Positions 38,201 to 63,866 of a stretch of 64,000 bases of DNA are shown here, one piece after another. The notes below the pieces were generated by a model. The model had not been told where the DNA came from. It did not search any database and worked only from the letters and a program-made list of their open reading frames with translations. Source of the stretch: Lycorma delicatula (lineage: Eukaryota; Arthropoda; Insecta; Hemiptera; Fulgoridae). Location: NCBI RefSeq assembly GCF_047948215.1, contig NC_134465.1:20232022-20296021 (forward strand). The letters are read 5' to 3'. Within the stretch, counting starts at the first letter, position 1. The number at the start of each line of letters is the position of its first letter. Made by a program: the position numbers and the translations under genes.

Positions 38201-38201
38201 G

Positions 38202-38262
38202 TTTAGTTACGATGAAAATCGTATGGAATGTAATAATATTAATTGTTTCTACATACTGGATG
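38202..38262 (+). CDS. Gene 2 exon 1: 5'UTR end and signal peptide
   Basis: The acceptor TTTTATTTTACAG ends at 38,201. The ATG is at 38,212, and 17 codons read MKIVWNVIILIVSTYWM, with a Lys after the Met followed by a strong hydrophobic core. The donor GTAAGT is at 38,263, phase 0. The length and layout match Gene 1 exon 1. The non-coding leader exon is upstream and was not identified. Confidence 0.8.
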
Positions 38263-38428
38263 GTAAGTTATAAAAAAAATATTTTTTCAGTTTATCTATT
38301 TTTTTTTATTAAGTGACATTTAAATATATTTGTTTACTGTTAACTAATGATGATTGAAATAGCTAAAATTAGTGACTGAACCTTAGATTATTTCTATAAT
38401 TACATCCTAAGGAATAACCATTATAAAT

Positions 38429-38497
<69 letters not shown>

Positions 38498-41400
38498 GTG
38501 TGTGGGTGGTGATAAAACTGATTTAATAAATTATTTGCAATACCACACCATTAACAAAAATAGTCAAAACCCTTTCTCGTAAACTCACAAACTTGAAAAA
38601 ATACATTTAAGTTAAAAATGGTTAATCAGAGTAATAACCACATCTCTTTGTGTATTATTATTATGGTGTCCGTGGTTGCTTATGCTGATGATGATTTGGC
38701 GTTGTTGGTAGCCGGAACGGCTGGCGTATTCAACAGTGCGACGGCTGAGCTCTTGCTTCAGGCCAGCGGCTTGGAGCTGGCGCCCAGGAAGACAAAATTG
38801 CTTGCAGAGGTGGGTCGCCGCAGAATCAGGGACATCACCGTTCTGGTTGATGGCTTCGGAGTGGTTATGTGAAACACATGTCGCTCTTGCGTGTCTGGTT
38901 TGAACGGAGCCGGCCTGTTCAACAAGCGTATTGCGGAGGTATCTAGCAAATAGAGAGGGCCGTTAACACTTTAGGCCGGTTAATAAGGCCAAGATGGTGG
39001 CAACGGGTGGCCCAATGGAGGTTACTTCTTTCGGCTGCGACATCAATACTTTTATATGCTGTCCCGGCATGGTTCGAAGTGTTGAACAGGAAGAGGAATA
39101 AATTATTAATACGGAATAGAGGAATAATTATTAATTATTTAATAATAAGAAATTATTATTAAATTATTATTACGGGCCAACCCGCCCGTAAGGCGGTTGG
39201 CCTCGCTCCAGCGGCGGGCAGAGTTGAAGATTGCGGTTGCTTATATAACTGTGTCTACAGCGGTAGCAGGGGTGGTAGCGGGTGTCCCGCCGATCCGCCT
39301 TCAGGCCCTGCCGTTAAAGAGAATATATGAGGGAATGCAGAAGGCTGACTCTGCATCCCTTCTCGTTCATGAGTGACAAGAGAGCTGGGATGCGTCATAT
39401 ACAGGTGCATGGACTCGGCGACTAATTCCTCGTCTAGAACCGTGGCTGGGGAAGAGGCATCAGGACGTCGGTTACTACGTCTCCCAGCTTCTCTTTGGCC
39501 ACGGAGGATTTGTGGCGTATCTTCACAGGTTTGGGAGGCGTGCGTTCCAAAATTGTATCTACTACGACCTCTTACATTTTACTGCTGCCTTAGATGGGAG
39601 GAGTTGAAGGAGAGGTCTCACTTGGGGTGGATCACACCGGATACTACAGTTGGCTATATATTGCGGGGCGTGGGCGAGTTCACTGTTTTAGGATGCTTTT
39701 TTTTAACAATTATTGTACTTTCCAATTAAATCTAACAGGTTAAAATCAAAACAGGAGGTATGTTTTTACCGAATTCACTTTTTACCTATAACAACACCTG
39801 TGAAATAAATATAATATATATATTTCAAGGTAATATATGTATATTTATTTATTTATATATTTTATAAATGTGAAATCATATTGTTGATAACAAGATGTAA
39901 TTTTTATACAAACAATATTTGTACTAATTAAACTAGAAAAGCTTTATCTATTGGCTATACAATAGATCAATTGAAAAGGAAGTTAAATTACCGATAATTA
40001 ATAACTGAAATATTATTTACAGAGAATATTTCATTGATGAAATAACAAGAAATTTCTATAAATGTATTAAAAAATATATAAAATAAAATATTATTTACTT
40101 ATATAAACGAATTGATGTTTTTTTTCCAGGAGACTGCTGGTTTTGTAACGCCAACAATAAAATCAAAATTTTCTGTAAAGGAAGACTCATCAGGGGTCAG
40201 TGTAATATAATAAAGTACATGGGATGGCTGAAATGTAATCGCTAATTACTCGCAAATGAAAAGAGAGCCAAGTGAAACAAATATAGCAAAAGAGTAAATT
40301 TTATTTTTCTATAAAAACTCGAAATTTTTTTTCTCACATAGATCATTTACAGCTACACGAAGGTATAACATATTCCGTCAATGAAGAATGTTGGCTGTCT
40401 TTCCTTGATCAACAATTTCATTGTGCTTCAGCTCATCAGTCGTGGTAAAATGAATACCCTTAATAAGTAAATTTAATTGCGGGAAGAAGTGAAAAATTCA
40501 GGGTGTCAAATTTCCTCAGTACGGAGGATGTGAAATAGGTTCAAATTTTCAACTTCGGCGGTTGAAAGCGATATGAGTGGCAAAGTATTGTAGTGTACCA
40601 GAATTATCAACTACGTGGATTGTCAAACTCAAAAGACATGTATTCTAAAGTTTTTTAACATCAAAATCTTTTCCACAGAATTTACAGTCGACCAAGCTTT
40701 CAGGTATTCAGTCCATGTACACATGTTTGGAATTTCAAACCACTTTCAAGAGAATATTTTTGCAGAGATTTGTCTTTTGTATTTTTTGTATTATGGTGAA
40801 CAAAAATGCTGGTTTTCCGTGCTTAGCCTTTTTTCTTCTGGGTCTTAATGATTCATCAAGCTTCGTTTCCCGTTATAACATTGAAAAGAATGGCATCTTC
40901 CCCATCACGATAACGTTTCAAAAATTTATAGCAATATTCCTTTCCTTTTCATTTTTTTTCTGTGAGTTTGCTTGGCAACATCCTTGAACAAACTTTATGC
41001 TAGTCGGGTTGGGCAATAATGTGCCCTGCTCGTTCTTCTGGGTGGTGGTATGTTGTTGTTTGTTGTAACGGCCATTTCGATTTCGAATCAATTCATCTAC
41101 CTTCTTTTGATGCTATTCATCAATCGTAGAAACCGGTCTATCATCCCAAGGTTCCTCCTCAATATTAACTTATTAGCTGCTTCTGATGCGTAAAATTTTA
41201 TTTCTCATCTGCTTACAGCTCTTTGCTCAAGTTTAATCGAAATAAACAGATTTTAGTCGACAATGAATGTCACTAACGTTCACCGTATTACATGTTAAAA
41301 ATTTACTAATTGTTTTAGACACGTTGACAGCAAGTGTTCGTGACTGAAAAAAAAACGAGAGATCGTGGGTCAATGAGTTTTATACTAGGAGAGTGGAACA

Positions 41401-44400: not shown

Positions 44401-47400
44401 TTCATGTCACTGATTTCTGATCTAATTTACATTTTTTTCTTTAGTTTTATATACACCCCTCCGGAGTCGGACCCGCAATTAAGCATATCACAGCTCCGGG
44501 GGGTGTCACCAACTCAACTTAACCAAGACCCACCCGGGTCTTGGTCGTAACAGTTGCCTGCCTCTAACCGGGTCCCCCGAGGGAGCCCCAGCCAGTTCTC
44601 GGTCTTAACAGCTCGGGGGCGACGGAGTCCTTGTGTCTCATCATCGTCGCCCATCCCGGCAAGCCAAGACGATTGAGTACTCAACAGGAAGCTGTCCATC
44701 ACCCCCTCGCTACCTCGTCGTCCCTTCCTTTGTGCTGCAGTATCTTTGTTATATATTCTGACACAGCTCTGAATTTGTTGGCTCCAGGAAGCATGTTCGG
44801 TACAATCGGGTCTACATCGAGGGATCCAGTTATTTGTTCACAGATGACTCTTTCAACCATCTACCGTCAACACCTGAACACAACACGTTCAGGGGAGTCA
44901 GTCTCCGCAATATAGGCACTCGAAATTGAGAATCCTCCTCCTCCCGAAAAGATATGACCGGAAAACCTCGTACTCCGATAAGAACTGGGTTAGTCAGAAA
45001 TTGAGTTGGCCAAATTTGCGGTCGATCCATGGTGCAACCTGTTTGATTAAGCGGTGGGAAACGCCTCGTTGATGATTGATCCCAACTCCTCTGTCACTTT
45101 CGTAACATGCCCGCCCGAGCAGTTACTTTGTCTCCTCCCCTAATGATATTACACTGCATCACCGCCAACTGTCGGAGAGGGGGAACTCCAGCAATTACTA
45201 GGACAGTCTCTGCTGAGACTGAGAAGTAAGCAGACTCGATCCTGAGGGCAATTCTCTTTTGGATCCCTTCGATGATGCGCCTGTTCGAGTCCTTCTTCAG
45301 CGCAGTTTCCCAGACCGTGATCCCATAGAGGAGTACAGAGTCTATGACATAAGCATATACCCTCCTGCGAGATGACCTTGGATCAAACAAGTCTAATTTA
45401 CTTACAATTATTTATACGTACGTATATAAAACTGATTGTAAATATAACTTTGAAGCAAGAAATTTACAAAATTCTGGGATAATCTTAAATTTAACTTTAT
45501 ATAAGCCGATTTCATATAATAGAGAAATGTGAAAATCCATTTTTGTTGTTTTTCACATATGTGATTCACACCAAACTGAAATTAAATGCCAAATACCTAT
45601 GATAATCACTTTTTAGTGTAATCCTGTAATTACTTTTCCCGATTTAATCATTCTAAACAAGAATAAGTAAATAATTTACTTCATAAAAAAATGTTATTTG
45701 ATATTAGAATTTTTAATTCGATATTATTTGAAAGAATTTTTTTCTAATTCCTTCAAAAATATATTAATTAAATAAAAATAATACGATTTTATTTTATTTT
45801 CAGGGTGTTAAGTATAAAATGAAGTCAACTATTAAACAAACTATGTATGATCCTACTGCTGGATCAGATACCGGGATAACTCCACCAACACCTCCTTTTA
45901 CGGTAATTACTCGTTAATAAAATATTATTTTATATAAACCATCAAAAAGCATGCAATATACAGTGATTTTTAAGTATTAACCTGATATTATGTACACTCA
46001 GTTAAAGGAAAGCATACCATTCTACAAGAAGAATTCAAGATTCTTCTCATCTACAACTTAGCAGTGCGTTGTCTTTAAGTAATATCTTAAGTTTATAATT
46101 TTTTGTATCATATTTGTTGATATATGTGTAGATTCGTCAATTATACGCTTTTCAAGTAATCATTACTGTTTGCTTTGTTACACGACTGCCCAAAACAGAG
46201 TGTAATGTATTTAGGATGTTTGTATCTTTGTTTGTTCCCCGTAGCAGCTCAACGGCTGAATTGATTTAGATGTATGACCCCGCGTTGGAATCCTTAAGTT
46301 TCCAGGACTGTTAAATAAATTTTTTTTAAAAATTGAAAAAAATATACTATATATAAAATACTATACACAAAATTGTCACCTGCACGATCCTTTATTTTCC
46401 TACATTAATAAATTATCCTATATTAAAGAGCAATATTTTTCATCAATGTTTTTTTGTTTTGTCATGTTTTTATTTTTAATTTTTTTAAATCCGGTGGTCC
46501 CGGATGTTAAAAACATAAATAAAAAACCACCCTCAGCCTACTGAAACCATAAGTAACTTTTGTTTATACTAAGTGTTTTTCAAACGTTTTTTCGGCATCT
46601 AGTAAAATTCTATTGGCTTACAAGTTGCAATAGCCATCTCCTCTCCTGTTAGATTTCACTTAAGATAAAAGGCCCTAATTTTGTTTTAAAAGAAAAAGTA
46701 CCAATTTTGTTTTTTTATTTTGAATCATGCATATTCCCATTTAATTCTTATTGGATATTAAAAATTCTTCGATTTTTCTCCATTGGTTAAAAATTAAGAG
46801 TTGTTTTTTTTTTTTTTGGGGGGGGGGAGAATCCGAAAAAGATCCAATACAATTTGCACTAAAGAAAAAATTTGAACTTCTACAACGTAATTTACTAATA
46901 AACACTTAGTTTTTAGAGACAATCAGATATTTTACTTGTACGTTGAAGTAAGAAAACAAAACGAGAAGTTATTAAGTTGCGTTGTTGTAAGTATCAGCTG
47001 ATTTAGTACTCTAAATGTGTAATATATTTCAAAATATTTACAAATTATTTTTCAAAATTTATTTTATTAAGTAATTTAGAACTCAAAATTTAAGTATATT
47101 TTTAAATTAAATATTGTGATAATTAAAGTAAATAAATATCAGTTAAACTAGCCATTTAATTGTGTTACTGCTGCAAATTATTGGTTATTCTGTGTTAACA
47201 TGTTAATTAATTATTATTGTGAAGGCTGCTTTTATTAGAATTTAGGCTATTCAATACAACATTAACTGTTCAAAGTCTGTTATGAAGTGTAATTCTGAAG
47301 GTAATACGAAATAAAAATAAATCCTTTCGGCACACTGGAAGGCGGAGATAGATTTCACCGGTACTAAAAAGGGGATAAAACAGATTTCCACCTTAAAGTT

Positions 47401-50400
47401 CAGAAAAACTTCAAATTTACTCAATGCGTTGGTTGCATATGAAAAAAGTTTCACATGTTTAGCATACGACCAGCTCTATCTTCTTACAATTTTTTCCACC
47501 CGTTGGCCCTTATCCAAAGAATAGCAGGAGCTTTAAACGAATTCGATATTTTACTTAAAAGGAAAGTTATAACGATATTTTTTTTTGGTTTGGTCATCCC
47601 TTGCCGTAAGGGTTGGTCATATCAAAAATTGTTTCAGGCAAGCGTTATAGGTAATGATTAGAGGATTAACGACCACCTTAAACCGATTCGATACAGTGCC
47701 TATTACGGGAGGTATGATTTTTTTGTCTTCGAAACCCCATTTTTTGCACCCGCTGGGCCAACGGTTGGTGATATCAAAAATCTTTACTTACATGAGTTTC
47801 AGGCCCTTATCCAAAGAATAGTAGGAACTTTAATCGAATTCGATATTTTACTTAGTAAGAAAGTTATAGCGATATTTTGTTTTTTTTCAAAAAAGCCCTC
47901 CGAGATTCACCCCCGTTGTTCGATTTTACCCATTAACGAACTCGACCGAAACTTTTGGTCGTTATATTTTATGCATCAATTTGAAAATTACGGCAATTAT
48001 CGTGTCCACAAGAAAGTGAAATATATACAGATGTATTTATATATATATATATGTAAATGTATATATAAACCTTTGGACTGACGGTGGTTTTAGGGTCTGG
48101 GGAATGCAAATTTCGAAGGTATGTCAAAATTTTCCGGAAATCGAATCATGGTACCCGTTACAATAAGTAGCTTTTTCATAAAATCTACCTAAAATTATTA
48201 AGGGCGTTTTAGAACTATCTACAATTTTCCATTTATGCAACTTTGATTATTTATAAAACAAAATGGAAGGAATTTATCTAGAAAGGGTTTGGGTATAGTT
48301 TTTCTTGTAAAGTATTACATTAAAATCATGAATCATATGTTCACTTTCCTATATAAAAAAAGTTTATGGCGTATCAAAGATGGCGACCATAAATTTGAAA
48401 TATACCATAAAATAGTAATTTTGTAACTACGTATAATCCCACTTGTTTCTACATCCTAGTATCCCTCAGTTTTTAAATATACAACGGTTTTCATACTTTA
48501 ATATAAGTTAATATATCAAGTAAAGTAGTGTATTTGTTTCTCGACAAAGAAAGAAGAAAAAAGTGAAATATTAGTTTGTTTTTATGTAATATCTTTCTTA
48601 GTTAATTTCAATTTGATCCATGTGCAGCCTTTTGAGATGCAATACAGTATTACTTTCCCACAAAACTAATGATATTTACTAAACGACCAATTCCTATGTT
48701 GAAAAAAGTATGAGGAAATTATTTTTAGGGCTGGAGATCATCTCCGCTTTTGTAGCCCTGGCAAGCTAATGTATAATAACATATTCGGTCGAATGAAGGG
48801 TCTGTTTCATTCCTGATTTTAAGCGTGACATGTAAGTATGTCACACTTAATATTTCATATATAACCTCTTATTCTCATATCAGATTACCACAATGATTTG
48901 ACTATGTTATCAAGCAAGCAAAGGGTGATTAAGAAAGGAATTTATAAAAAAAAAAATATTAACAAAAGCGTTTTTATGCAGAAATGTTTAAAAATAATAA
49001 TTATTGTAATAATATATCAAATTACTTATTAAGTTCTAATACAAACGTATGTTATGTTTATTTTTTTTTCAGAACAACAATTATGAAGCGAAGACGAAAA
49101 TTAAACAAAGTGTTACATACTCATACCATCCACCAATTCCTAGTACAACTTCTGAAGTGTTTTCACCATATCCATATACGGTAAATACCCGCTTAGAAGC
49201 ATATATTCTTTATATTGAAAGTTTATACAAAATATTAATTAAGTTAGAAAAATAAATATTATTTATTTTAGAAGGAAGTTAGTTTGTGAAAAGTTACAAA
49301 ATTTGGCTTATTATTTATTATTTTAAAAATTTACTTTACTATGGCGGTGAATATAGCTAGAATAGATAAATTAAAGGGGATAGTATCGTGATATTGTCAG
49401 AAATAAGGTAAATCTTTACGTTTTTACAAATTTTTACGTTTTAAGGTCCAACTATTCGTCTAGAAAAAAAAAACATGTACATAAATGCATGTATGTTCTG
49501 TGATTACGTAATTAGTATACTTTTATATATCACACTGTTTTTGGCTTATATCTCAGGATTGACTTAACCTATTTTCTTTAAATTTGGCACAAATATTCTC
49601 ATTTACGGGGGCATTGATCGTACTCATTTTTTTCAAAATTTGTTTAATATAAAATCAGCAGGCCTCCCCGTCCCGATATCAGATGGGATATCGTGAAAAA
49701 ACAGTTTCGATTCTTTTCAGAAGGATGTTCAAGATTACATTATTAAAGCAAATCTTTTACCTAAAGTGCATAAATAAATAATAAAAAAAAAAAATTCTAA
49801 ACCTAAACCTCCATTTCATAAAATTGAAATATATAATTTTTATATTTTCCTTTACCTTTCTTCGGTTTAAGAATTTTTCAAAAATTTCTTGAAAATTTAT
49901 ATTTTGTATATAAAACTATTAAGAAATATTTTTAAATTATAAAACCCGGACCTAAAATGCAAAAACGTTTTATTGAAAATTTTCCTTTTTTATTGTAGCC
50001 TTTAATGAAGGGACCTATTTATCTATACAGAAAACTTCACTTATGTAGATTTGTCAATCTTAATCTATATACGCATACTTTAGAAATGGTTTTTAAAAAT
50101 TAATTCTTCACCTCTAAAAAATATATAGTTTTTGTGTTTTTTTGGTTATTGGGCTCTTATATATCTGGTGATTCAAAAACGACTTCACAACTTTAAAATA
50201 ATATAAACATTTATTTAGATAAGTTACAGACGGTTGAGGTTTCGTCGGCAAAATACATCAAGGTTTTACTCACGTAGTTCATTAATACCGAATTTGGCCA
50301 CCAGTGTAGTTAAAAATGGATACATTTTCTGGCGCAGAACGTGCTCGCTATGTGATTTGGTTTCACGATTTGCAGTCACCATCTTCAGTTCAACATAATT

Positions 50401-51434: not shown

Positions 51435-51516
<82 letters not shown>

Positions 51517-53355: not shown

Positions 53356-53434
<79 letters not shown>

Positions 53435-56400
53435 TATAATAGAATAAAGAATTATTTAATTAAACATTAATTTATCATTAAAAAATCGATCTGAAAGATC
53501 AATTTTTATTTCCGAATTTTTATTCAAATTTTTATTTGTGACGTCGAGCTAGCAGAAACAAAAATACAATTAGTGTATCAAGGATCTACATATTCCTTGG
53601 TTATTTTATAAAATAAATATTTTAATAAATAAACAGAACAGAACCGACACATACATTACATCCTGAATGTATTATAATGACAAATCATACCAAAATTATA
53701 TATTTTAGAATTTGATTTTCAGGGTGGAGTAATCCCATCAACTCAACAACTGATGAATCCTCCAGGTTTTGGACAGACTCCCGAAATGACTGTACCATTT
53801 CCCATCTTTCCGGTAATTATACATCTAAATAATAATAATAACAATAATAAATACTTTATTTTTAATATTTCATTTTAAAATACATTAGTTACAAAAATTA
53901 ATTAAAATATATGCCATACTTCACAATTTGTAATTAGCGTAAATTCTTCAGCTTAATTTAAATATTCTCAACTGGAAAGTTGGAGTACTAAGATAAAATA
54001 ATACTATTAATGAAAACACGAACTCTAGTTATTAGAATAACAAATAAAGAAAGTAATCTGGATAGAATAATAAACAGAGGTAAAATATTACTAAATACAA
54101 AAATAATACCATTATTATTGCTAATATTACGCATGGTAACACAGGCTACGAATTCACCTAATTCCTGTCTGAACATGGATGTTTCCGAGACTATCTGTAA
54201 GGATGGGCAGATGTCATACAAGTCGCTGTCGTAATTGCGGCGGGCTGGATGCAGTAGAGCGCGTGGTGTTCTTTTGCTCTAGATGCGCGACTTAATACTA
54301 GTGCTCGAGCATCAGGGTGTGAAGGGGCCAACAATATAATCAAGGTGATGTCAAGCAATAGCGACAGATGGGAATATATATATATATTGTTGTGACTACC
54401 ATCACAGCAATGACGGGCGAGAAGGTCAATGAGGAAAGGCGACGACAGACTAAGGAGATGCAGATCGATAGACATCGAGTTTGATGACTATCGATCGGAG
54501 TTTAATGACGGGTGATCAAGGTAAGCCAGCTTCTGGGGGTGGGCAGCGGGGCTCCTCGGAGTCATCGCTCGTCGATTGCCTCCTGGGCACGCCTTCTGGT
54601 CATCCAGATTCGGATAGTAGAGCGTCTGGGTGATAATGCAGGGGCTGTACATACCATATGGTTTAGATCCGGCCCCTTCATGATAAGAGGGGAGGGTTTT
54701 TAGCGAATGAGTGTCCTGCGGGCCTAACGGCGGCTGGCACAGCTTTTCCTCCCCCTACAGACAAAAAAAAAAATACTACCACGCAATATTTTATCTTCGT
54801 AGGAAAAATTAATTCCTTTTAATATCAATAAGATCAAATTTATTAAGGCAATTAAAATTTTTTTTTAATTTTAAGCGCAAGAAAATGTTTGATTCTCAAT
54901 GTGAGCGGCGGGTGAAAACGTTTGAGAATCAATGTACTACGGATGTACTTAAGAAAGAAGTAAAGTATTTCCACTTTCCTTTTGACGTTCCTTTGCAGAT
55001 GTATAGTTACACTTACAATGACTACACATTTATTTCCGGCAATTTCCTTAATTAAAGAAATTCAGTTACAGAAAAACAATAACGGCGTGTTATATATTTA
55101 AAAATTGGGCTGAAAACCTATTTCCAGTCCATCATCACGTTCTAATGGACGGATCCGGTTGATTTTATTTTATTCTGCTTGGAATAACCTACAAGTATGT
55201 CATCAAGGGTCATCGGACGACAAACATGTCTCCTCTGAGAATTCCTCGAAACTTCCTATTTATTCTTAAATTGAGAATCTTTCCAAGGGAAAGATCATCA
55301 TCTGATTGCCGATGATTGATGACATATCTTTGAGTCTTTCCGAACGGAATAAAAAATAAAATATCACCCCAATCCTTTCAGTAGAACATCTGGACGGACG
55401 GAAAAGAGGTTGTATACACGCAGTTTACCTGTTGCAGCAGGTAACCTATAATGAAAGAAAAAAAACAAGGAGGTTGGTGGAGAGACATGTTGTAAATGGA
55501 ATAGGGGTTTTAGGTAATGTTGTTAAATATATAACATTAATGTATAATAATAACGCTGCGGAGCAGCAGGGATCACTAGCTTGTTGATTGATATGTTTAA
55601 TATATATATACTGTAAATTTAGTTAAAAGAATCATTTGTTTTATATAAATCTTATAAAATTCGATAGACATACAATGAACAAGAGACATATTTCTTTTCA
55701 GGACGGAAATATTAAGACATCGTATAAAGCAAAAATTTATCCTCCTGTTCCTGGATCGGATTATGGAATGTATTCGTCGCCTTATATGCCGGTAATTATG
55801 ATTCATTAATATAGACAAGTAATTTATTCTGAAGAACTATTTTTAAGTAAAGTATAAATACATAAACTATTATAATTTTTTTTTAGAATTTAAAATTTCC
55901 TGCCCAGCGCTATAAAAGGAAAATTAGTGTGGTAAACGGTCCATTTTGGTCATATGCGATTTTCACCGGATCATTACGTTTTGAAACAAATAAACCCAAA
56001 AACCGGATGGAAATTTTCCGGATCTTCGTATGTACGTGTATCTTCGTAATCACACTAAAAATAACTTTATACCTCCACAAATACTGCACCGATCTTGAAC
56101 AAACTTGGTCAGATTACTTCTATAAATGAGGCATTGATGCCATTTAATTTTCGACTTATAAGTTCGTGGGGGTGAGGCTATATAGCGAGGTCATCCTGAC
56201 TATCTCGAGATTTTGCCTAATTAAACTGTTATTTATCTTAGGAACATTTATTAACAATTAAAAAATAAAAATATTTGAAAAAACCATTTTATTGCAAAAT
56301 CGCACCCCCACACAAAAAAATGCTCTAAAATAGTGGCTAAATTGGTATACTGCGTCAATGGTACCCCTTATCCCACAAGGAGCGCTAGTATATTACTGAT

Positions 56401-59400
56401 GTGCTAAATTAAGTTGTGTGTGCATGTGTGCGCGTGCTTGTGTAAGCCGCGTCACGGGATAGTCTTACAACAGTGTTGTCAATTTTTTTTTTAATTTCTA
56501 TAAAATATTATTTAAATATATAAAATATTATGAATCATACCAAAAAATATTCAAAATTTGATTTTCAGGACGGAGTAATGCCGACACCTCAACAAATGAT
56601 GAACCCTGCAATCTTTGGGCAAACTCCAGAAATGACTCAACCATTTCCCATGTTTCCGGTAATTATAAATATTATATTTTTATTTATACTATTATCAGAA
56701 TTTTTTACGTTTTTGCTGCAATCTTTCTCCAATATACGACGGTTTGATAGCTTCTTCAGCAATATTATATCGTGTAAGGATATCATAAAGCATTAAGGTA
56801 TTAAAATATTCCCCTTATATTGAAAATTCATTCTTATTTCAGGAATATTCTTTAAATGTTCCTCTGTCGATTTTAAATCATACATTCAATGACTGGAGAT
56901 TTATTCTCAGCGGTTTACTAAATTAAAATTTTTGTTACAAGAAATAAATTTTATTTTCAGGAGGCCTATGGAAAATTATCTTACAAACAAACGATATACC
57001 CTCCTGATACTGGATCAGATTTTGAAATGTATTCGTCGCCTTTTATGCCGGTAATTATTAATTAGCATAGAGAAATAAATTTATACGAATAATTAATTTA
57101 TTTAACCAATAATTACAGAAAATTAAACTTGTTTTTTAAATGATAGTTAGTAATCAATGTAAACTAGAAAAAAAAAAAATATATATATATATATATATAT
57201 TGTAAATCTTCATATCTGAAACGAAGCTATCGATACCAAAAATGAAATTAATGTATCAAGGGTCAACATATTCCTTACACTTAAAATAAAACTTTTGATG
57301 GCTATTATAAGGAACAGAAGAAATTTTAATAAATATTTTCTCCTTTTATATATATTATAAATATGAATCATACCAAAAAATATTCATAATTTGATTTTTC
57401 AGGGCGAAGTAATACCACCACCTCAACAAATGATGAACCCTGCAATTTTTGAGCCAACTCCAGAAATGACTCAACCATTTCCCATGTTTCCGGTAATTAT
57501 AAATATTATATTATTATTTATGCTGTTATCAGAATTTTTTATGTCCTTGTTGCAGCCTTTCATATACTACGTTTTGGTTGCTTCTCCGCTAACATCATAT
57601 CCGGTAAAGATAAAATAAAAAATTAAGGTATTAAAATATGTGGAGGTTACTTATTTAACAAATTCAGTTACAAGAAATAAATTTTATTTTCAGGAAGCCT
57701 ATGGGAAATCATCTTATAAACAAACAATATACCCTCCAGATCCTGGATCAGGTTTTGGAATGCATTCGTCGCCTTTTATGCAGGTAATTATTAAATAGCA
57801 TACACAAATAAATTTATACGAATAATTATTTTTATATAATCTATAATTACAGAAAGTTAAAAATTGATTTTAAATGATAGTAAATAATCGATGAATATTA
57901 CAAGGCTGTATATATAAGAACATTATCGGGCGAGCGAATTCAGCAAATACCGGCTAATAAGTGTTTATAATTATATATATATATATATATAGTTTTCGCT
58001 AATAATATATATATATATTTGGTTTTCGCTATTCACAATTTGCCGGTTAAAATATATTTAAGCACATTAATAATCACACTTCAGTAAAATAAAATTTCAT
58101 AAAACAAGTTAAAAATGAGACCAATAAAAATAATTTTTAGGTAAATATCATTTCTTGTTTATATTATATTATATCACTGAAACGGACCGTAAGAACGATG
58201 AAGTTCGGAAATACATTGTAATCATCACGACCATGTAACAAAATATCGCTTGGACCTTTGTCTAAAATTTAAACAAGCGTAAACCTCTTTGGTGACGTTG
58301 CGTCCGGGGTAGCTTCGAAGTGATCAGAGAGTATTGAAGATAAATAGCTACCAATTTCAAAGAGAAACAACATTTCGCTCACGAACCGGTAGCGTTTTCT
58401 GCATCTAATCGAATACCGCATTTCTCCAGGTCATATTTGTTTACGGAACGGATCCTTCGATTTAGCATCGCAAATGGGCGAAACATCTTATCCGCTCAAC
58501 TCTATTCTCGCTATCTCGCTACTGATTTTATACGCAAGCACTTTCTCCTCCATTATTTCAATCTCTTTGTTAGTTTTTCCAGCCTCTGAAAGTACTCAGA
58601 AACGCGGTCCTTTCTCGTCGGGTCCGTAGAAGATACGACTGATGCTACTCAACAGAACGGTAAAATTTACTAGTTTAGTAGCATTTGAAAATGATCTCCC
58701 GTTATATACCGCAGGTGGATGTGAATGATTTTTTTCAACTCGCCAGTTTTTTAGTCCCCACAGCAGTCGATTCCATTTTATCTTCCACGGGATTTCAATA
58801 TCTTGACGTCTAATAAATTCATACACACTATTGTATACTTCAATTTTTTTACCGTACACATCAGACAAGCAACAATCTTGAACGTGAGAGGTTGATCCCT
58901 AATCCAGCAGTGATGAAAGAATCTAACTGAGATGCCAAAGCCGCGCGTTTCACGCTGACTGCAATATTAGTGAACGTAATTTGCTTCATATTTATTGAGT
59001 TGCAATTTTGTATATCTTCTCGTTACAAATGCTACTTTTCGATAATGACATAACTTTTCTCTTGTTTCGTCTATTCTAATTCCGACGTTTTTTAATTTCC
59101 TATTAAAAACACTTTTCAGATCGTTCAGACCTTCTATGCTTCAATCATTCACTCAACGTCTTGCGCTTGCATACGGAACAGTAATGCTAAAATAAATTTC
59201 TGGTATCGCATCAAACTCCTTGTCTATTCGGCTTGGGAAGATATAAATTTGTTCTGTTGATGTGGTTATACCACTGCGGAAAGACAAAAATTATCCAAGT
59301 AGACACATATATTCTTAAGAACCTCAACTTCACGACCGGCTCTTCCTTCCAACGTCTGTCAGTGATATTGATTTCCCCTACCGCTCTTTTCCTACGGATA

Positions 59401-62400
59401 TCAAATCCGCCTAATAAACTACCGAAAAAAGCCTTATATTTCCACTTGATTGTATCTCGGATAATATTCAAACGCTGTTTTGCAAAGACACTCGTCTGAA
59501 TTCATTAACAGTGTAAGTCATGCACTCTCATATATATTCTCTTTCTCGTATTCTGACGAAAGTATATTATTCGACTCGGATGAAATTTGTCCAAATACCA
59601 TAGCAGCTCTGGAAAAAGAATTTCATGTTTGCCGCTACCTTCATCAAGGGAAATTAAGACTGACCGTCATCAGAACTATCTGCACCAATTTAAAATATTT
59701 TTTTTAGAGAAATACCCCCTGCCAACGGCACCTGACCTACATTCTTCCATCCTATTGGTTCGAGGTGGGAAAAGAGGAGGGTGACTTGATCTTGATGACG
59801 TTTCGTGGTTGAAGATCATGGTTATTTTTACTTCCAATGTCGATACTACTTGTAGGATTCAAACGAAGAAGGCACTCTCTTTATATAAAAGTGGTATAAT
59901 TAAAACTATTTATTCCAATTTTTTACTTTGAGATATCGGAAACAAAAATAAGAGTAAAATATCACGGACTGAATTTTCCTTGAACTTAAAATGAGATTCT
60001 TTAGGTTAAATTATTTAAATATTATCTATATATAAATTTCAATGTTAATAATTTTATTAAAATAAAGCCTTGTATAGAAAAAATATTAAATGTAAAATTA
60101 TCATTTTACTAAAAAGATTATATATAAAAAAAAAAAAATGTATAATTATGTAATCCGTTTTTCTGTTATAGTCAGAATACAAACCAATTTTTTACATATT
60201 TTTTACTTTTTTTATTGTATTATTATCATATAAATTATCTTCTGAGGTGTACAGTATTCATTTAAGGCTAAATGAAAGAGTAAAAATGATAGGTTTTTGT
60301 GCGTTACTGCTCGTAGATTGATTACTTATCTTTCCACTGGAGAGCGCCACTAGCAAAGATGGCGACTTTTGAACAGAAAAGCTATCCGTGTTTTGCAGTT
60401 TCCTCAAAAAAATTTATAGTTTCAGTTGAGATGTATTCGTTGCTTATAATGCCGGAAGTATTAGTTATCATACAGAAATTAATTAATATTGAAAAGTTCT
60501 ACTGAAATTATATATATATATATAACGTTTCTTACATAAAAGTATTTATTTCATTAAAAATGAATGTCTCATAAATAAATGATTTGAAAAATTTATAAAA
60601 AATGATATACCATTTTCCTTTATTTGTAATTTTTAGAACCCGGAATATAGTTGGTTGTAATATACAATAAAGTTTAAAAAAATAATTTTTTACTGAATAT
60701 GTGTACTGATTAATCATACCAAAAATTATATTTTTTAAAGTTTGGTTTTTAATAGGGAGTAATGCCATCAACTCAACAAATGATGGATCCTGCACTTTTT
60801 GGACAGACTCCAGGAATGATTCAATCATATCCGATGTCACCGGTAACTATACATTTGATACTATTATTGTTGGGTAAAGTTAAAAAATAAAAAAACACAC
60901 AGCTAGTATTTGCCAAAAGAAATTGGACTTTAATTATGTAAAACAACTGAACTTATGTTAAAGCATAACCTTAAATTGAATGAAATTATGAACTAAACAT
61001 AACTTAATTTCACATAAGAAATATCAACTGAAATCAGCATATCAGTAATAATATTATTAAAATGAGATTTACAATTATATACTTAGAAAAACAAAACATC
61101 AATAAACATAATATAACTGGAGAACTATTGCATTACTGACAAATGCTGTAATATTGAAAAATTAGCAATGAACAAATGTCATAACCTTAGAAAAATAAAT
61201 TAAAGTAAATCTTGATTGGCATTGGCCTTTCCTGATTTATGAACCACAAACTTAACGTTAAATAATGTAAAAATGTAATTTTAGTTTGACGTAGAAAAAG
61301 ACACAATAATATTACAGTACAAAAGAGTTAATTACAATATAATCACACTGAACTTAATTGAGCACATGAAATGGGTTGCAGCTGAAATGACAGTCTTCTG
61401 TAAGTGACCTGTCGTGACCGTACTAAAGTGAAATTGAAACTTGAACGGCATAGGTAGGATGAACGGAATGTTCCACAGATTTGAATGATAACATAAAGGT
61501 TTAACGTAATGAGTAAAGAAAAACTGAACTTGCCTGTAGCAACAAATATTTGCCAGAGATGACCTCGTAACAGCAAGTACGGAAGAATACCTATGTAGTC
61601 CTGGGCGTAGTCCGCACGGTGAATCAGGAATACAGCGGCGTGATGTGGTTTAGTGGTAGAATGCGGCGCGGAATCTCAAATGTGTTGTGATGAGTTTGAA
61701 ATTCTGCTTGAGCGTGAATGTTAACACAGAGTTTTGCAGGAGAGTATTGCCATAGGCGACTGCACTGGTTAGATGTTGGAGGTACTCTGCCGAAAAGATG
61801 GCGAAAAAGGGCGGGGGTAACCAGATCCAGGTACTGGACAGGAGAGTGTGTGTGTGTATATTAGTAAGAGGACGAAAAGATAACGGGTGTATGAAAAGGT
61901 TAGTCAGAAATAACTCGATAGAATAATGGGCGCGGTCGCTAAGGATGACGGGGGGAGGGTCGAACAGAAGAACAATAATAGAGACAGGTGGACTTTACGG
62001 ACCCAGCAATACGAAACCAAGTGGAATTCAAACATTCCTTGTAACAAAGCAACGGGACCTACCCTAGCTGTGAATTCGTAGAAATAACGGAAAAACTTTA
62101 TGCCAGAATGGCGTAAACAATTATTATAAAATGTTATCTGAATTTTTTACTTATTTCCTTCAAATATTCTACAATTTTCTGAGTTTATATTTTTTTTTTT
62201 TTACCAATACATCTTATCGATATATCCCAAAAAGTAATAAGGTATTTAAATAACCACCTTATATCAGAAATTCATTCACGATTTCATTCATTTTCGATAT
62301 CACGAGCGGCGTTCTTCTGCCGCTATTTAATCACACATTCTATGGCTGTGAATTTATTCCCAACATTTTACAAAACTAAAGAAATTCAGTCAAAAAAAAA

Positions 62401-62625
62401 AAACAACAAAAACGCAAGAAATGTATTTATTAATTCATATGAACAATATTGTAAAACTATTTTTAAATCATGTTTTATATAACTATTTAATATTTCAATA
62501 AAAAATAACAAACAAAAGATAAATTTTATTTCTAGGACGTCAAAGTGAAGTCATCGTATAAACAAACAATATACACTCCTGTTTCTGGATCGAGTTACGG
62601 AATGTATTCTTCACCTGATATGCCG
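38202..62625 (+). CDS. Gene 2: secreted protein of alternating duplicated micro-exons (gene model, 3' end outside the window)
   Basis: Proposed join: 38,212-38,262; 40,130-40,201; 45,804-45,902; 49,073-49,180; 53,723-53,812; 55,702-55,791; 56,569-56,658; 56,961-57,050; 57,403-57,492; 57,694-57,783; 60,756-60,842; 62,536-62,625. Twelve exons encode 349 residues so far without a stop, and every intron is phase 0. Residues 1-17 form a signal peptide. The rest are modules of two types. Type A has consensus GKxSYKQTIYPP with GSxxGMYSSP and is Lys/Tyr-rich. Type B has consensus QQMMNPAIFGQTPEMTQPF and is Gln/Met/Pro/Phe-rich. No stop or terminal exon was found before the window ends, so more modules probably follow. 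No known family is recognised. Secretion is strongly suggested. The mix of Lys/Tyr in A and Gln in B would suit cross-linking into an extracellular material, but this is speculation. Confidence 0.78.
38427..38512 (+). repeat. (CA)n(TA)n compound microsatellite
   Basis: About 16 CA units followed by about 14 AT units, bounded by CACCCACCCACAC on the left and GTGTGTGGGTGGTG on the right, so the whole tract is a near-palindrome. It lies in Gene 2 intron 1. Confidence 0.9.
38630..39730 (+). pseudogene. R1-like LINE 3' fragment (reverse transcriptase to C-terminus)
   Basis: The plus strand has the catalytic box (VVAYADDDLALLVAG, with one extra Asp codon compared with the usual YADDLALLV), then the LAPRKTKLL segment and, in other frames, GLFNKRIAEV and the C-terminal domain (VSTAVAGVVAGVPPIRLQAL). 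It ends with GHGGFVAYLHRFGRRAF near 39,500. An AT-rich stretch at 39,105-39,175 interrupts it. Frameshifts and stops make it dead. It is inserted in Gene 2 intron 1, on the same strand as the gene. Confidence 0.8.
40130..40201 (+). CDS. Gene 2 exon 2: mature N-terminus
   Basis: The acceptor TTTTTTTTCCAG ends at 40,129. Twenty-four codons begin ETAGFVTPTIKSKFSVKEDS. Two donors are possible, both phase 0: GTCAGT at 40,196 (22 codons) or GTAATA at 40,202 (24 codons). I chose the second because GTAAT-type donors dominate this gene. The frame closes (TAA) at once after the donor. Thr/Ser/Lys-rich, it is a divergent relative of the A exons (TIKSKFSVK against STIKQTM). A mariner element begins only 16 bp downstream. 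Confidence 0.68.
40218..41479 (-). mobile_element. Degenerate mariner-like element with TIRs and TA duplication
   Basis: The left terminus CATGGGATGGCTGAAATGTA and the inverse of the right terminus (TGAAGGCTGGCTGAAATGTA) pair, and TA flanks both ends (40,216-40,217 and 41,480-41,481). The 1,262-bp length fits mariner. The interior looks like a heavily mutated transposase on the minus strand (helix-turn-helix region around 41,150-41,290). The long plus-strand frames are not convincing. It occupies the start of Gene 2 intron 2. Confidence 0.7.
41530..41620 (+). repeat. tRNA-like sequence (SINE head)
   Basis: GCGGTAGAGCGGTAGGATTA resembles a D-arm/A-box and TTTTGAGTTCGAGTTTTGGT a T-arm/B-box, with a short anticodon-like arm between. 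The stems pair poorly, so it is a tRNA-derived repeat or a decayed tRNA rather than a gene. Confidence 0.45.
41621..43730. repeat. Gene 2 intron 2: mixed repeats
   Basis: It contains two GCGAGCGAAGCGA-type words (42,315-42,430) shared with the 36.3-kb foldback. A MITE-like inverted repeat is at 42,895-43,085, where CACCATCAAAGATAGTGTTA faces TAACACTATCTCTGATGGTT. The rest is AT-rich. No exon of the A or B type was found. Confidence 0.5.
43735..44015 (+). pseudogene. jockey-like LINE C-terminal fragment
   Basis: The plus strand reads LLKPVWTYGIQLWGVTCKSN, then IIQRFQNKLSTEEPWFVRN and, after a stop, LRFNNYENYLPVNLLDNS. This is the characteristic C-terminal region of jockey-clade reverse transcriptases. 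It has at least two stops. It lies in Gene 2 intron 2. Confidence 0.75.
44150..44255 (-). repeat. tRNA-derived SINE, family 2, copy
   Basis: CTGATCGGGATTCGAACCCT and TGACACGTTACCACTCCGCC are the inverse B-box and A-box. It is similar to the copies at 8.7 and 21.0 kb. Confidence 0.7.
44450..45395 (-). pseudogene. R1-like LINE 3' fragment, opposite strand
   Basis: The minus strand encodes the post-RT domain (RVYAYVIDSVLLYGITVWET, then SAYFSVSAETVLVIAGVPPL at 45,190-45,240) and, past stops, a C-terminal Cys pair segment (FECLYCGDRLPERVVFRC near 44,910). The 3' end borders TTTTTTTCTTTAG near 44,435. It is 5'-truncated at 45,395 and dead. It lies in Gene 2 intron 2, antisense to the gene. Confidence 0.8.
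45804..45902 (+). CDS. Gene 2 exon 3 (type A1)
   Basis: The acceptor TTTTATTTTCAG ends at 45,803. The 33 codons begin GVKYKMKSTIKQTMYDPTAG and close PPTPPFT, with the donor GTAATT at 45,903. The KSTIKQTMYDP core is the A-module signature (KxSYKQTIYPP in later copies), followed by the GSD motif. Phase 0/0, 99 bp. The adjoining intron also matches the intron after the last A exon (see findings). Confidence 0.8.
45950..46700 (+). repeat. Intron block shared with 63.2-64.0 kb
   Basis: Words around 46,015-46,130 (ATTCAAGATTCTTCTCATCT, then TTAGCAGTGCGTTGTCTTTA) match 63,245-63,360 with moderate divergence. The block near 46,610-46,680 (TTGGCTTACAAGTTGCAATA and AAGATAAAAGGC) matches 63,935-64,000. 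Both follow an A-type exon at similar distances. It is either duplicated with the exon or a repeat present in both introns. Confidence 0.55.
47325..47945 (+). repeat. Dispersed repeat family S, copy 2
   Basis: It matches 12,920-13,345 (AAAAAAGTTTCACATGTTTA and GGTTGGTCATATCAAAAATTG-like words). Internally, two half-units also resemble each other (CCTTATCCAAAGAATAGTAG at 47,807 and CCTTATCCAAAGAATAGCAG at 47,508). No coding is recognised. It lies in Gene 2 intron 3. Confidence 0.6.
47946..49072. other. Gene 2 intron 3, remainder
   Basis: AT-rich. The segment 48,075-48,300 resembles generic dispersed repeat text. A poor (TA)n tract lies near 48,040. No exon is recognised. Confidence 0.35.
49073..49180 (+). 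CDS. Gene 2 exon 4 (type A2, divergent)
   Basis: The acceptor TTTTTTTTTCAG ends at 49,072. The 36 codons begin NNNYEAKTKIKQSVTYSYHP and close FSPYPYT, with the donor GTAAAT at 49,181. AKTKIKQSV aligns with the A core (KSTIKQTM or KSSYKQTI), and the ending SPYPYT aligns with SSPYMP. Phase 0/0, 108 bp. It is Tyr-rich with no Cys. Confidence 0.78.
49181..50215. repeat. Gene 2 intron 4, repeats
   Basis: 49,530-49,760 (TTGGCTTATATCTCAGGATT, then AAATTTGGCACAAATATTCT) reads like a dispersed repeat. No coding is recognised. Confidence 0.35.
50220..50790 (+). pseudogene. Tc1/mariner transposase N-terminal fragment
   Basis: In broken plus-strand frames it reads MDTFSGAERARYVIWFHDL, then ETECSVFHTRSPGRPS-type linker text, IPEAVVERLKESFACSPKKP and a degenerate tail with FCVEMMDRI. 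This is the DNA-binding half of an insect Tc1/mariner-type transposase. Shifts occur near 50,400 and 50,515, and no catalytic motif is present. The minus-strand frame at 50,266-50,514 is its shadow. It lies in Gene 2 intron 4. Confidence 0.65.
51434..51530 (+). repeat. (TA)n(TG)n microsatellite
   Basis: Roughly 38 TA units followed by about 8 GT units in Gene 2 intron 4. A long uninterrupted run like this is expected to be length-polymorphic. Confidence 0.95.
52373..52662 (+). repeat. tRNA-derived SINE, family 1, near full length
   Basis: The A-box region is GGTGGTCTAGTGGTGAACGC, the B-box is GCGTTAAAGTCCTAGTAAAG, the body GGATTTGAATACTAGATCGT, and the 3' end CGGAGGCTAAACAGGAAAAA. Confidence 0.85.
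52790..53100 (+). repeat. Polypurine-tract dispersed element
   Basis: An almost pure A/G tract (about 52,815-52,975) is followed by text ending AGCGAAGCATTGCCGGGTTT and GCTAAT. CTAAT at the end fits the CTRRT end of Helitrons, but the required hairpin was not demonstrated. It is related in composition to 21.7-22.3 kb in the opposite orientation. Confidence 0.4.
53349..53432 (+). repeat. (CT)n(AT)n microsatellite
   Basis: About nine CT units followed by about 32 AT units in Gene 2 intron 4, some 290 bp before exon 5. Confidence 0.95.
53723..53812 (+). CDS. Gene 2 exon 5 (type B1)
   Basis: The acceptor TTTGATTTTCAG ends at 53,722. The 30 codons begin GGVIPSTQQLMNPPGFGQTP and close PFPIFP, with the donor GTAATT at 53,813. 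It is the first B module: Gln pair, LMNPP, the FGQTPEMT core and the Pro/Phe ending. Exactly 90 bp, phase 0/0. The preceding intron end (AATCATACC followed by TTTGATTTTCAG) is conserved in front of the other B exons. Confidence 0.88.
54130..54772 (+). pseudogene. R1-like LINE 3' terminal fragment
   Basis: The plus strand carries the terminal domain FLSEHGCFRDYLQGW (the GHGCF-type motif) and then, in the next frame, RNCGGLDAVERVVFFCSRC, a Cys-rich knuckle like that of the other R1-like copies. It ends in a poly-A run near 54,760. It has stops and shifts. It lies in Gene 2 intron 5. Confidence 0.75.
55702..55791 (+). CDS. Gene 2 exon 6 (type A3)
   Basis: The acceptor TTTCTTTTCAG ends at 55,701. 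The 30 codons begin DGNIKTSYKAKIYPPVPGSD and close YSSPYMP, with the donor GTAATT at 55,792. This is the canonical A module: KTSYK, IYPP, GSD, GMYSSP. Exactly 90 bp, phase 0/0. An antisense frame here is a shadow. Confidence 0.88.
55900..56400 (+). repeat. Dispersed repeat in Gene 2 intron 6
   Basis: CGATTTTCACCGGATCATTA and ATACTGCACCGATCTTGAAC-like phrases are typical of interspersed repeat text. A GC-richer patch at 56,280-56,470 is unassigned. No exon is seen. Confidence 0.35.
56569..56658 (+). CDS. Gene 2 exon 7 (type B2)
   Basis: The acceptor TTTGATTTTCAG ends at 56,568. The 30 codons begin DGVMPTPQQMMNPAIFGQTP and close QPFPMFP, with the donor GTAATT at 56,659. It differs from exon 9 (B3) at 8 of 90 bases, 6 of which change the residue. 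Exactly 90 bp, phase 0/0. Confidence 0.9.
56961..57050 (+). CDS. Gene 2 exon 8 (type A4)
   Basis: The acceptor TTTTATTTTCAG ends at 56,960. The 30 codons begin EAYGKLSYKQTIYPPDTGSD and close YSSPFMP, with the donor GTAATT at 57,051. It differs from A5 at 11 of 90 bases (6 replacement, 5 silent by my reading). Exactly 90 bp, phase 0/0. Confidence 0.9.
57403..57492 (+). CDS. Gene 2 exon 9 (type B3)
   Basis: The acceptor TGATTTTTCAG ends at 57,402. The 30 codons begin GEVIPPPQQMMNPAIFEPTP and close QPFPMFP, with the donor GTAATT at 57,493. GQT of the other B exons is changed to EPT. The upstream 40 bp of intron (TATGAATCATACCAAAAAAT) is nearly identical to that of B2, showing a segmental copy. 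Exactly 90 bp, phase 0/0. Confidence 0.9.
57694..57783 (+). CDS. Gene 2 exon 10 (type A5)
   Basis: The acceptor TTTTATTTTCAG ends at 57,693. The 30 codons begin EAYGKSSYKQTIYPPDPGSG and close HSSPFMQ, with the donor GTAATT at 57,784. The ending is MQ where other copies have MP. Exactly 90 bp, phase 0/0. Confidence 0.9.
57950..58025 (+). repeat. Interrupted (TA)n in Gene 2 intron 10
   Basis: Two TA runs separated by TTTTCGCTA-type text, which itself recurs near 57,995 and 58,020. Confidence 0.75.
58170..59870 (-). pseudogene. Unrecognised decayed coding tract
   Basis: This block is less AT-rich than the surrounding intron and has several long minus-strand reading stretches that read like real protein in different frames: 59,471-59,211 (WKYKAFFGSLLGGFDIRR, VVKLRFLRIYVSTWIIF), a short continuation below 59,220 (EFDAIPEIYFSITVPYA), 58,960-58,860 and 58,868-58,560 (YGKKIEVYNSVYEFIRRQDI, PWKIKWNRLLW). 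The breaks suggest frameshifts in a once-longer gene. I do not recognise it. A non-LTR element is unlikely because no RT motif is seen. A degraded large DNA transposon gene or an old inserted viral gene is possible. It lies in Gene 2 intron 10, antisense to the gene, where a B exon would be expected. Confidence 0.4.
60405..60457 (+). pseudogene. Relic of an A-type exon
   Basis: AAAAATTTAT is followed, after a deletion, by GATGTATTCGTTGCTTATAA and TGCCGGAAGT. This matches the end of exon A3 (GGAATGTATTCGTCGCCTTA and TATGCCG|GTAATT) and the intron after it. The donor GT has become GA, and the middle of the exon is lost. It sits just before exon 11, so a fifth B-A unit seems to have been lost here. 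Confidence 0.65.
60756..60842 (+). CDS. Gene 2 exon 11 (type B4)
   Basis: The acceptor TTTTTAATAG ends at 60,755. The 29 codons begin GVMPSTQQMMDPALFGQTPG and close QSYPMSP, with the donor GTAACT at 60,843. It is one codon shorter than the other B exons at its 5' end because the acceptor is shifted by three bases. The TTTTAATAG acceptor is weaker than the TTTTCAG of the other units. 87 bp, phase 0/0. Confidence 0.82.
60868..62119. mobile_element. Solo LTR (1.25 kb) with 5-bp target duplication
   Basis: It starts TGTTGGGTAAAG and ends GCGTAAACA, so the termini are the inverted TGTT...AACA. It is flanked by ATTAT on both sides (60,863-60,867 and 62,120-62,124). The flanking intron, rejoined, matches the intron after B2 (ATTATCAGAATTTTTT against TTATCTGAATTTTTT). 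There is no internal gag-pol, so it is a recombinant solo LTR. A tRNA-like stretch (GTGGTTTAGTGGTAGAATGC) lies inside. It is inserted in Gene 2 intron 11. Confidence 0.8.
62536..62625 (+). CDS. Gene 2 exon 12 (type A6), last one in the window
   Basis: The acceptor TTTTATTTCTAG ends at 62,535. The 30 codons begin DVKVKSSYKQTIYTPVSGSS and close YSSPDMP, with the donor GTAACT at 62,626. The intact donor implies that further exons follow beyond 64,000. Exactly 90 bp, phase 0/0. Confidence 0.88.
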
Positions 62626-63570: not shown

Positions 63571-63866
63571 CTTTTTTTTTTCCTGTTAGCCTCCGGGAAT
63601 TACCATTCAGATAATACTTCAGAGGATGAATGAGGATGATATGTATGAGAGTAAATGAAGTGTAGTCTTGTACATTCTCAGTTCGACTTTTCCTGAGATG
63701 TATTGTTAATTGAAACCCAACCGTCAAAGAACACCGGTATCCACGATCTAGTATTCAAATCCTAATAAAAGTACTGCTTTTACTAGGAATTGAACGCTGG
63801 AACTCTCGACTTCCGAATCAGCTGATTTGGAAGACGCGTTCACCAGTAGACCAACCCGGCGGGTTG
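63571..63866 (-). repeat. tRNA-derived SINE, family 1, minus strand, near full length
   Basis: It is the inverse of the 52.4-kb copy: TTCCTGTTAGCCTCCGGGAA at its 3' end (with poly-T for poly-A) and AAGACGCGTTCACCAGTAGA at the A-box. Confidence 0.85.

What the first reader, a model, noticed from the sequence alone, without database searches (positions are those of the whole stretch)
38202..62625. A secreted protein built from alternating, tandemly duplicated 90-bp phase-0 exons
Gene 2 has at least 12 coding exons of 51-108 bp separated by introns of 0.2 to 5.6 kb. Every boundary is phase 0, and after exon 4 the order is strictly B-A-B-A-B-A-(lost)-B-A. A uniform phase means exons can be skipped, added or reordered without breaking the frame. 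The sequence shows the exons, their AG/GT borders and the duplicated modules directly. The micro-exon secretory architecture is known from schistosome MEG genes and aphid bicycle effectors, but these modules look unrelated to both. I infer a new, fast-evolving secreted family and see nothing in the window that contradicts this.
Basis: partly seen in the sequence, partly recalled or inferred. Interest (0 to 1): 0.9.

Follow-up and report, generated by a model that had tools for sequence, protein, structure and literature searches.

The report
Insect secreted protein of alternating exon cassettes
A large, probably insect, gene appears to build a cysteine-free secreted protein from two kinds of 30-residue, single-exon blocks, one rich in lysine and tyrosine and one without lysine, much as vertebrate elastin is built, although its product and tissue are still unknown.

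Summary
The exon pattern is real. A and B modules score 63-76 bits against at most 11.7 in 10 shuffled windows and are under purifying selection (spanning-tree Ka/Ks 0.49 for A, 0.33 for B).

The gene runs past the window: 20 intact phase-0 exons, 38212-80560, 581 codons, no cysteine. Beyond the window the B-A order breaks (6 of 7 further modules are A), and two A copies are dead. One of these keeps length and splice borders but has an in-frame stop. B modules were found nowhere else in the 2.2-Gb genome; A modules only as one 1-kb fragment 5 Mb away. Same-strand Pro/Gln/Tyr-rich genes lie next to it.

The new clue: in the modules all lysine and nearly all tyrosine sit in A; B is Gln/Met/Pro-rich. 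I read this as a copolymer of cross-linkable and spacer blocks, one per exon, like tropoelastin by convergence. Bicycle and MEG structure tests were not met. Expression, species, cross-linking and function are unshown; an injected salivary role remains possible.

The parts
38212..38262 (+). E1, 17-residue signal-peptide-like first coding exon; an acceptor-like CAG ends at 38201, 10 bases upstream, so a 5' UTR intron is likely
   Evidence: one of only 3 such exons found by a filter on 264 kb, 0 on the other strand
40130..40195 (+). E2, 22 aa, phase 0, single copy (weakest exon)
   Evidence: AG/GT borders, open frame; no relative found in 264 kb
45804..45902 (+). E3, 33 aa, divergent A-like exon
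   Evidence: 17.4 bits to the A profile against shuffled maximum 11.7; flanked DNA profile E=1.6e-9; 22.1 bits without flanks
49073..49180 (+). E4, 36 aa, phase 0; kinship to A not significant
53723..53812 (+). B module 1, 30 aa, no Lys or Tyr
55702..55791 (+). A module 1, 30 aa, Lys/Tyr-rich
56569..56658 (+). B module 2
56961..57050 (+). A module 2
57403..57492 (+). B module 3, 91% DNA identity to B module 2 (most recent unit duplication)
57694..57783 (+). A module 3, 88% DNA identity to A module 2
60426..60463 (+). possible dead A remnant, 3' half only, no donor (weak match)
   Evidence: E=0.09, 10.3 bits; 6.3 bits without flanks; sequence
60756..60842 (+). B module 4, 87 bp
62536..62625 (+). 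A module 4. Past the window, in window coordinates, the gene goes on with A 67019-67108, dead A 67224-67321, B 69751-69840, A 72177-72266, dead A 74692-74781, A 75308-75397, A 75511-75597, A 78967-79056, A 80025-80114, terminal exon 80483-80557 and stop 80558-80560

Best explanation
The locus is one 42-kb gene (38212-80560) for a secreted, cysteine-free, low-complexity protein of about 581 residues, assembled from two types of roughly 90-bp phase-0 exon. The A blocks carry the modules' lysines and nearly all their tyrosines and would be the cross-linking or adhesive units. The B blocks are lysine-free, nearly tyrosine-free and rich in Gln, Met, Pro and Phe, and would be hydrophobic spacers. 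Alternating them would give a cross-linkable copolymer (a glue, gel, coat or elastomer outside the cell). Because all exons are in phase 0, block number can change by exon duplication, decay or skipping without breaking the frame. Shown: gene structure in DNA, purifying selection, A/B composition split, cluster setting. Inferred: splicing as drawn, skipping of dead copies, secretion, cross-linking through Lys/Tyr, and the material role.
For: 20 exons all divisible by 3, with open frames and a stop right after the last. Lys 21 of 299 residues in 10 A modules against 0 of 149 in 5 B modules (p=2e-4), Tyr 39 against 2 (p=1e-5), Gln 8 against 18 (p=1e-4), Cys 0 in both. Over the 20 exons Pro 15.8%, Ser 11.7%, Tyr 8.8%, Gly 8.3%, one Arg. 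No dibasic or RXXR site inside any of the 20 exons. Purifying selection: spanning-tree Ka/Ks 0.49 (A) and 0.33 (B), p about 2e-4 each; all-pairs values 0.49 and 0.41. Neighbouring genes carry long Pro/Gln/Gly/Tyr repeat exons. Alternating elastomeric and cross-link domains, each tending to match a single exon, are described for elastin, and tyrosine cross-links for resilin, abductin and gluten (PMC3291537, passages); alternating 36- and 48-nt exons in devil-ray elastin (PMC12733013, passages).
Against: No RNA, protein or tissue evidence. Alternation breaks after 62625: 6 of the 7 further module exons are A. The dead A copy at 74692-74781 is 90 bp long, in frame, with AG and GT borders, and carries an in-frame stop; unless it is skipped, the product ends there and five module exons and the terminal exon are not translated. 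Lys and Tyr content alone does not show cross-linking. Secreted effectors and mucins can also be Pro/Ser-rich and disordered (general knowledge).
Confidence: 0.48

Rival explanations
1. A soluble salivary protein injected into the food plant or host that acts on it, with exon turnover driven by an arms race. It works like bicycle or MEG products without being one.
For: Signal-like first exon, many small same-phase exons, exon birth and death, modules found only at this locus and one fragment. Many bicycle genes, which share the many-small-same-phase-exon style, are salivary-gland genes (PMC9168663, passages).
Against: Modules are under purifying, not evident diversifying, selection. No cysteine, low complexity, and repeat-rich genes next door. 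No tissue data either way.
Confidence: 0.22
2. A mucin-like, chorion or coat protein with no cross-linking, where A and B are only two drifted forms of one low-complexity repeat.
For: Pro/Ser/Thr/Gly-rich; no Pfam family on the 4 exon pieces scanned. Flanked A and B DNA profiles detect each other weakly.
Against: Without splice-site flanks the A-B match is not significant (hhalign E=0.34, DNA scores 2-11 bits against up to 7.9 for unrelated sequence). Lys, Tyr and Gln are partitioned far beyond chance between A and B.
Confidence: 0.18
3. A decaying, truncated or unexpressed gene whose exons are partly relics.
For: Two clear dead A copies, one of them with splice borders intact and an in-frame stop. 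TE remnants in introns. The neighbouring gene 1 repeat exon has in-frame stops.
Against: 20 exons keep frame, all internal ones keep AG/GT borders, and Ka/Ks is well below 1. Modules beyond the stop-bearing copy are also intact.
Confidence: 0.1
4. A multi-peptide precursor (for example a proline-rich antimicrobial polyprotein), each exon a peptide cut free after secretion.
For: Repeated 30-aa exon units. A paper on wasp antimicrobial-like genes contains the words 'exon duplication' (PMC2853521, search listing only).
Against: No dibasic or RXXR site inside any of the 20 exons; modules are near neutral or acidic, net charge +1 to -3.
Confidence: 0.02

Closest known systems
Vertebrate tropoelastin (ELN), especially devil-ray elastin
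   Same: Alternating lysine-bearing and hydrophobic blocks, each tending to match one small exon; growth by duplication of exon pairs (PMC3291537, PMC12733013, passages).
   Different: No KAAK/KAAAK or VPGVG motif in the 15 modules (one KAK) and no Cys in the terminal exon. A blocks are Tyr-rich, B blocks Gln/Met-rich. Alternation is only partial. No kinship shown; likeness in principle, not membership.
Aphid bicycle genes
   Same: Signal peptide, many small internal exons of one phase.
   Different: Internal exons phase 0, not phase 2; published classifier score -97.6; no Cys and so no CYC motif.
Schistosome micro-exon genes (MEG)
   Same: Symmetric exons that can be skipped in frame; secreted products.
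   Different: MEG micro-exons are under 36 bp between two long flanking exons (PMC4671649, passages). Here the shortest exon is 51 bp and the first and last are short.
Resilin, abductin and other Tyr-cross-linked elastomers; mussel foot protein 1
   Same: Repetitive proteins with Tyr as cross-link residue (PMC3291537, passages). The resemblance of A to the Lys-Ser-Tyr-Pro-Pro repeats of mussel foot protein is recalled only.
   Different: No Pfam match on the pieces scanned. Here the two block types sit in separate exons.
Leafhopper brochosome-associated Gly/Tyr/Pro-rich proteins
   Same: Secreted, Gly/Tyr/Pro-rich insect coat proteins (PMC10607721, passages).
   Different: Reported there as largely confined to Membracoidea. 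No sequence of them was compared here.

Membership tests
Bicycle genes | Internal exons almost all phase 2 | tested here: not met
   18 of 18 internal exons start in phase 0; feature from PMC9168663, passages
Bicycle genes | Gene-structure classifier above 0.72 | tested here: not met
   linear score -97.6, probability about 4e-43, with the published coefficients; still -16.0 if all internal exons were phase 2
Bicycle genes | Paired C-Y-C motifs | tested here: not met
   0 Cys in the 20 exons, though Cys-free members exist (PMC13041983, passages)
Bicycle genes | Saposin-like fold | not tested
   no structure was predicted
Schistosome MEG | Central micro-exons under 36 bp between two long exons | tested here: not met
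   0 of 20 exons under 36 bp; first 51 bp, last 75 bp plus stop; definition
Schistosome MEG | Mostly symmetric exons | tested here: met
   20 of 20 divisible by 3
Tropoelastin | Lys cross-link blocks and hydrophobic blocks in separate exons | tested here: met
   Lys 21/299 in A, 0/149 in B; cross-linking itself not tested
Tropoelastin | Regular alternation of the two block types | tested here: inconclusive
   B A B A B A B A in the window, then A B A A A A A
Tropoelastin | KAAK-type cross-link motifs, VPGVG-type repeats, Cys-containing basic C-terminus | tested here: not met
   no KAAK, KAAAK, KP or VPGVG in the 15 modules, one KAK; no Cys in the terminal exon
Antimicrobial polyprotein | Dibasic or RXXR cleavage sites between units | tested here: not met
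   0 inside the 20 exons; sites spanning exon junctions were not searched
Salivary effector (any) | Expression in salivary gland and secretion into host | not testable with these tools
   no RNA or protein data held
Brochosome-associated Gly/Tyr/Pro-rich proteins | Sequence kinship and Malpighian-tubule expression | not tested
   no sequences of that family were fetched

The most novel reading that the evidence does not exclude
An insect lineage has independently evolved an elastin-like gene: a secreted copolymer whose Lys/Tyr cross-link blocks and Gln/Met/Pro spacer blocks are separate, frame-neutral exon cassettes, so that material properties are tuned by exon gain, loss and skipping, while its cluster neighbours reach great length by repeats inside a single exon.
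Probability: 0.3. Interest if true: 0.75.

Novelty: new variant of a known kind. Interest (0 to 1): 0.55.

Why it matters
If the reading is right, the two-exon-cassette way of building a cross-linkable secreted polymer, described in vertebrate elastin, arose separately in an insect. One locus would then hold both routes to repeat growth side by side: exon duplication (this gene) and intra-exon tandem repeats (its neighbours). Two clearly dead A copies beside ten intact ones suggest that uniform phase lets cassettes be lost without killing the gene. Even if the material role is wrong, it is a clear case of symmetric-exon birth and death.

Tried and rejected
Protein-database searches with residues 1-170 of two neighbouring single-exon frames (not with gene 2 itself): 75 and 255 word-sharing candidates, none with E<=1. 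How well those collections cover insects is unknown to me. Pfam on 7 pieces, 4 of them gene 2 exons: only sub-threshold hits, two on gene 1's short last exon and one DDE remnant at 19318. tRNA and Rfam scans of the window: 0 hits. A dispersed repeat in viral and genome collections: 0. The B module in viral contigs: 32 pattern matches, none confirmed. A-B common origin: flanked DNA profiles cross-matched, but the signal fell to near noise once splice-site flanks were removed, so I leave it open. B module against the Pro/Gln repeats of the neighbouring genes: no significant match. Species: 2.20 Gb in 14 sequences is compatible with Lycorma delicatula (2.252-Gb curated assembly, PMC6791401, passages), but this is not proof; the chromosome number of that species is recalled. 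The SP-exon filter and the splice/composition scans were tuned on known exons, so recovering those is by construction; the informative results are the zero hits on the other strand and the new hits. Of 9 new relaxed + strand hits, four in the duplicated upstream blocks and one at 55887 look false to me. Searching the genome with gene 1's terminal exons did not complete, so the family was not sized.

Full report
What was checked. Profiles built from 4 A and 4 B exons find these copies in the window (63-76 bits) and, above noise, only a divergent A-like match in E3 (17.4 bits); the best score in 10 shuffled windows was 11.7 for A and 9.5 for B. The profiles were built from the same exons, so their own scores are high by construction; the contrast with shuffled sequence and with the rest of the window is the test.

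Coding evidence. Between the two most recent B-A units, B exons are 91% and A exons 88% identical. Their first 60 downstream bases are 88% and 78% identical, the next 140 bases 69% and 59%, and the 150 upstream bases 63% and 49%. In several older A pairs the first 60 bases after the exon are about as conserved as the exon, so exon borders alone are not a sharp divide. Of 12 pairs one (B 53723 against 60756) has Ka/Ks above 1. Over all intact modules pN is below pS in 41 of 45 A pairs and 9 of 10 B pairs. Along a spanning tree Ka/Ks is 0.49 for A (p=1.8e-4) and 0.33 for B (p=2.0e-4); over all pairs 0.49 and 0.41. So the modules are coding exons under constraint rather than under evident positive selection.

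The rest of the gene. Fetching 100 kb on each side shows that the gene continues to 80560: A 67019, B 69751, A 72177, A 75308, A 75511, A 78967, A 80025 and a terminal exon 80483-80557 followed by TAA. In all there are 20 intact exons, 1743 coding bases, 581 codons and 19 introns of 113-5608 bp. Module order is B A B A B A B A A B A A A A A, so strict alternation is a feature of the first half only. Two A copies are clearly dead: 67224-67321 (98 bp, broken frame, stop, lost donor) and 74692-74781 (90 bp, in frame, AG and GT kept, one in-frame stop). A third, half copy at 60426-60463 is a weak match (E=0.09; in the noise without flanks). Because neighbours share phase 0, skipping a dead copy leaves the frame intact, but whether the second is skipped is untested; if not, the product ends there. 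In preparing this report I first took that copy for frame-broken; one search showed otherwise, and I lowered my main confidence from 0.50 to 0.48 and raised the decay rival from 0.08 to 0.10 for it.

Genome context. The window lies on a sequence of 83.1 Mb in an assembly of 2.20 Gb in 14 sequences. A B peptide finds 5 places, all in this gene. An A peptide finds 14 places: the 10 intact and the 2 clear dead copies here, and 2 at one place 5 Mb away on the other strand. That place is a 1.05-kb copy of 74956-76004 at 91% identity, carrying two A exons in frame, with no other module in the 20 kb fetched around it. The tool scores only its best candidates, so these counts are lower bounds.

Cluster. 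A filter for acceptor-led signal-peptide exons returns 3 hits on the + strand of 264 kb (at -12187, 8129 and 38212 in window coordinates) and 0 on the other strand. In DNA context the first is alike to both others beyond all of 600 random ATG contexts; the second and third are not clearly alike (12 of 600 reach the score). Large Pro/Gln/Gly/Tyr-rich frames behind an acceptor lie at -84140, -61147, -5389 and 23308. The exon at 23308 matches that at -5389 (E=6e-31) and that at -61147 (E=2e-11); -84140 is alike in composition only. Further exon candidates lie downstream at 91602 and 121842. A relaxed splice and composition scan gives 26 hits on the + strand, 9 of them not in the training set, and 0 on the other. 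Kinship of gene 2 to its neighbours thus rests on the first exon and on position; its modules do not match them significantly.

Composition. In 299 A residues there are 21 Lys and 39 Tyr; in 149 B residues 0 Lys and 2 Tyr. Gln is 8 against 18, Ser 47 against 6, Met 19 against 19, and neither has Cys. Each A has 1-3 Lys and 3-5 Tyr; each B has 0 Lys and 0-1 Tyr. The modules of one class share descent, so these p-values describe the split but overstate independence. The leader exons E2-E4 also contain Lys.

Mechanism. The best-supported model is a secreted copolymer: A blocks for Lys/Tyr cross-linking or adhesion, B blocks as hydrophobic spacers, length and spacing set by exon number. Alternating elastomeric and cross-link domains, each tending to match one exon, is how elastin is described (PMC3291537, passages), and devil-ray elastin has many copies of 36- and 48-nt alternating exons (PMC12733013, passages). 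This is a likeness in working principle, not kinship. Where the product is used depends on the species and organ, both unknown; if the insect is a sap feeder, a salivary-sheath or injected role remains open. That the genome is an insect's is itself inferred from its make-up, not shown.

Known kinds. The published bicycle classifier gives -97.6, phase is 0 instead of 2, and there is no Cys. MEG genes have micro-exons under 36 bp between long exons, not met. A cleaved polyprotein is unlikely, with no dibasic or RXXR site inside the exons. No homologue outside this genome was found, but gene 2 was searched only as exon pieces in Pfam and viral contigs, and the large protein database only with two neighbours. 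Library searches bearing on such a gene were made; by title and start of abstract none of the papers listed describes it, and only the few papers cited above were opened, as passages.

Limits. No transcript, no protein, no named species, no second genome. Secretion rests on the first exon alone. The exons were searched one by one, and the whole spliced product was left unassembled in case the protein is an injected effector of a crop pest.

Noticed in passing
22901-23134 and 23308-26454: Gene 1 has two neighbouring, weakly homologous last exons (tblastn E=1.6e-4): a short one with its own stop and a long one with a 39-bp Pro/Gln repeat array, so alternative short and giant products look possible.
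   Followed up: partly
23700-27437: The 13-residue repeat array of gene 1 (about 96 copies) is interrupted by in-frame stops at 26455 and 27193, in stretches that look alike about 740 bp apart, suggesting a recent internal duplication.
   Followed up: no
window coordinates about -52900 to -35500 and -34900 to -17900 (fetched): Two blocks with matching reading frames 17.6 kb apart, with non-LTR-like frames and long ATT-type repeats, lie between the upstream genes; a 100-N gap sits at -34863 to -34764, so an assembly artefact is possible.
   Followed up: no
G000:C11:25241583-25241883 (L034): A dispersed 1-kb copy of two A exons with their intron, 5 Mb away on the other strand, still open in frame.
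   Followed up: yes
53526-53598, 57204-57276, 59910-59982: A 73-bp intron element recurs about 198 bp upstream of two B exons and once more where a B exon may have been lost; shared descent or a splicing signal.
   Followed up: partly
about 10310, 11710, 52390 and 63500-63850: Copies of a dispersed repeat with a conserved palindromic AATCAGCTGATT-like core, read by eye; the last two are also seen in L034/L035.
   Followed up: no
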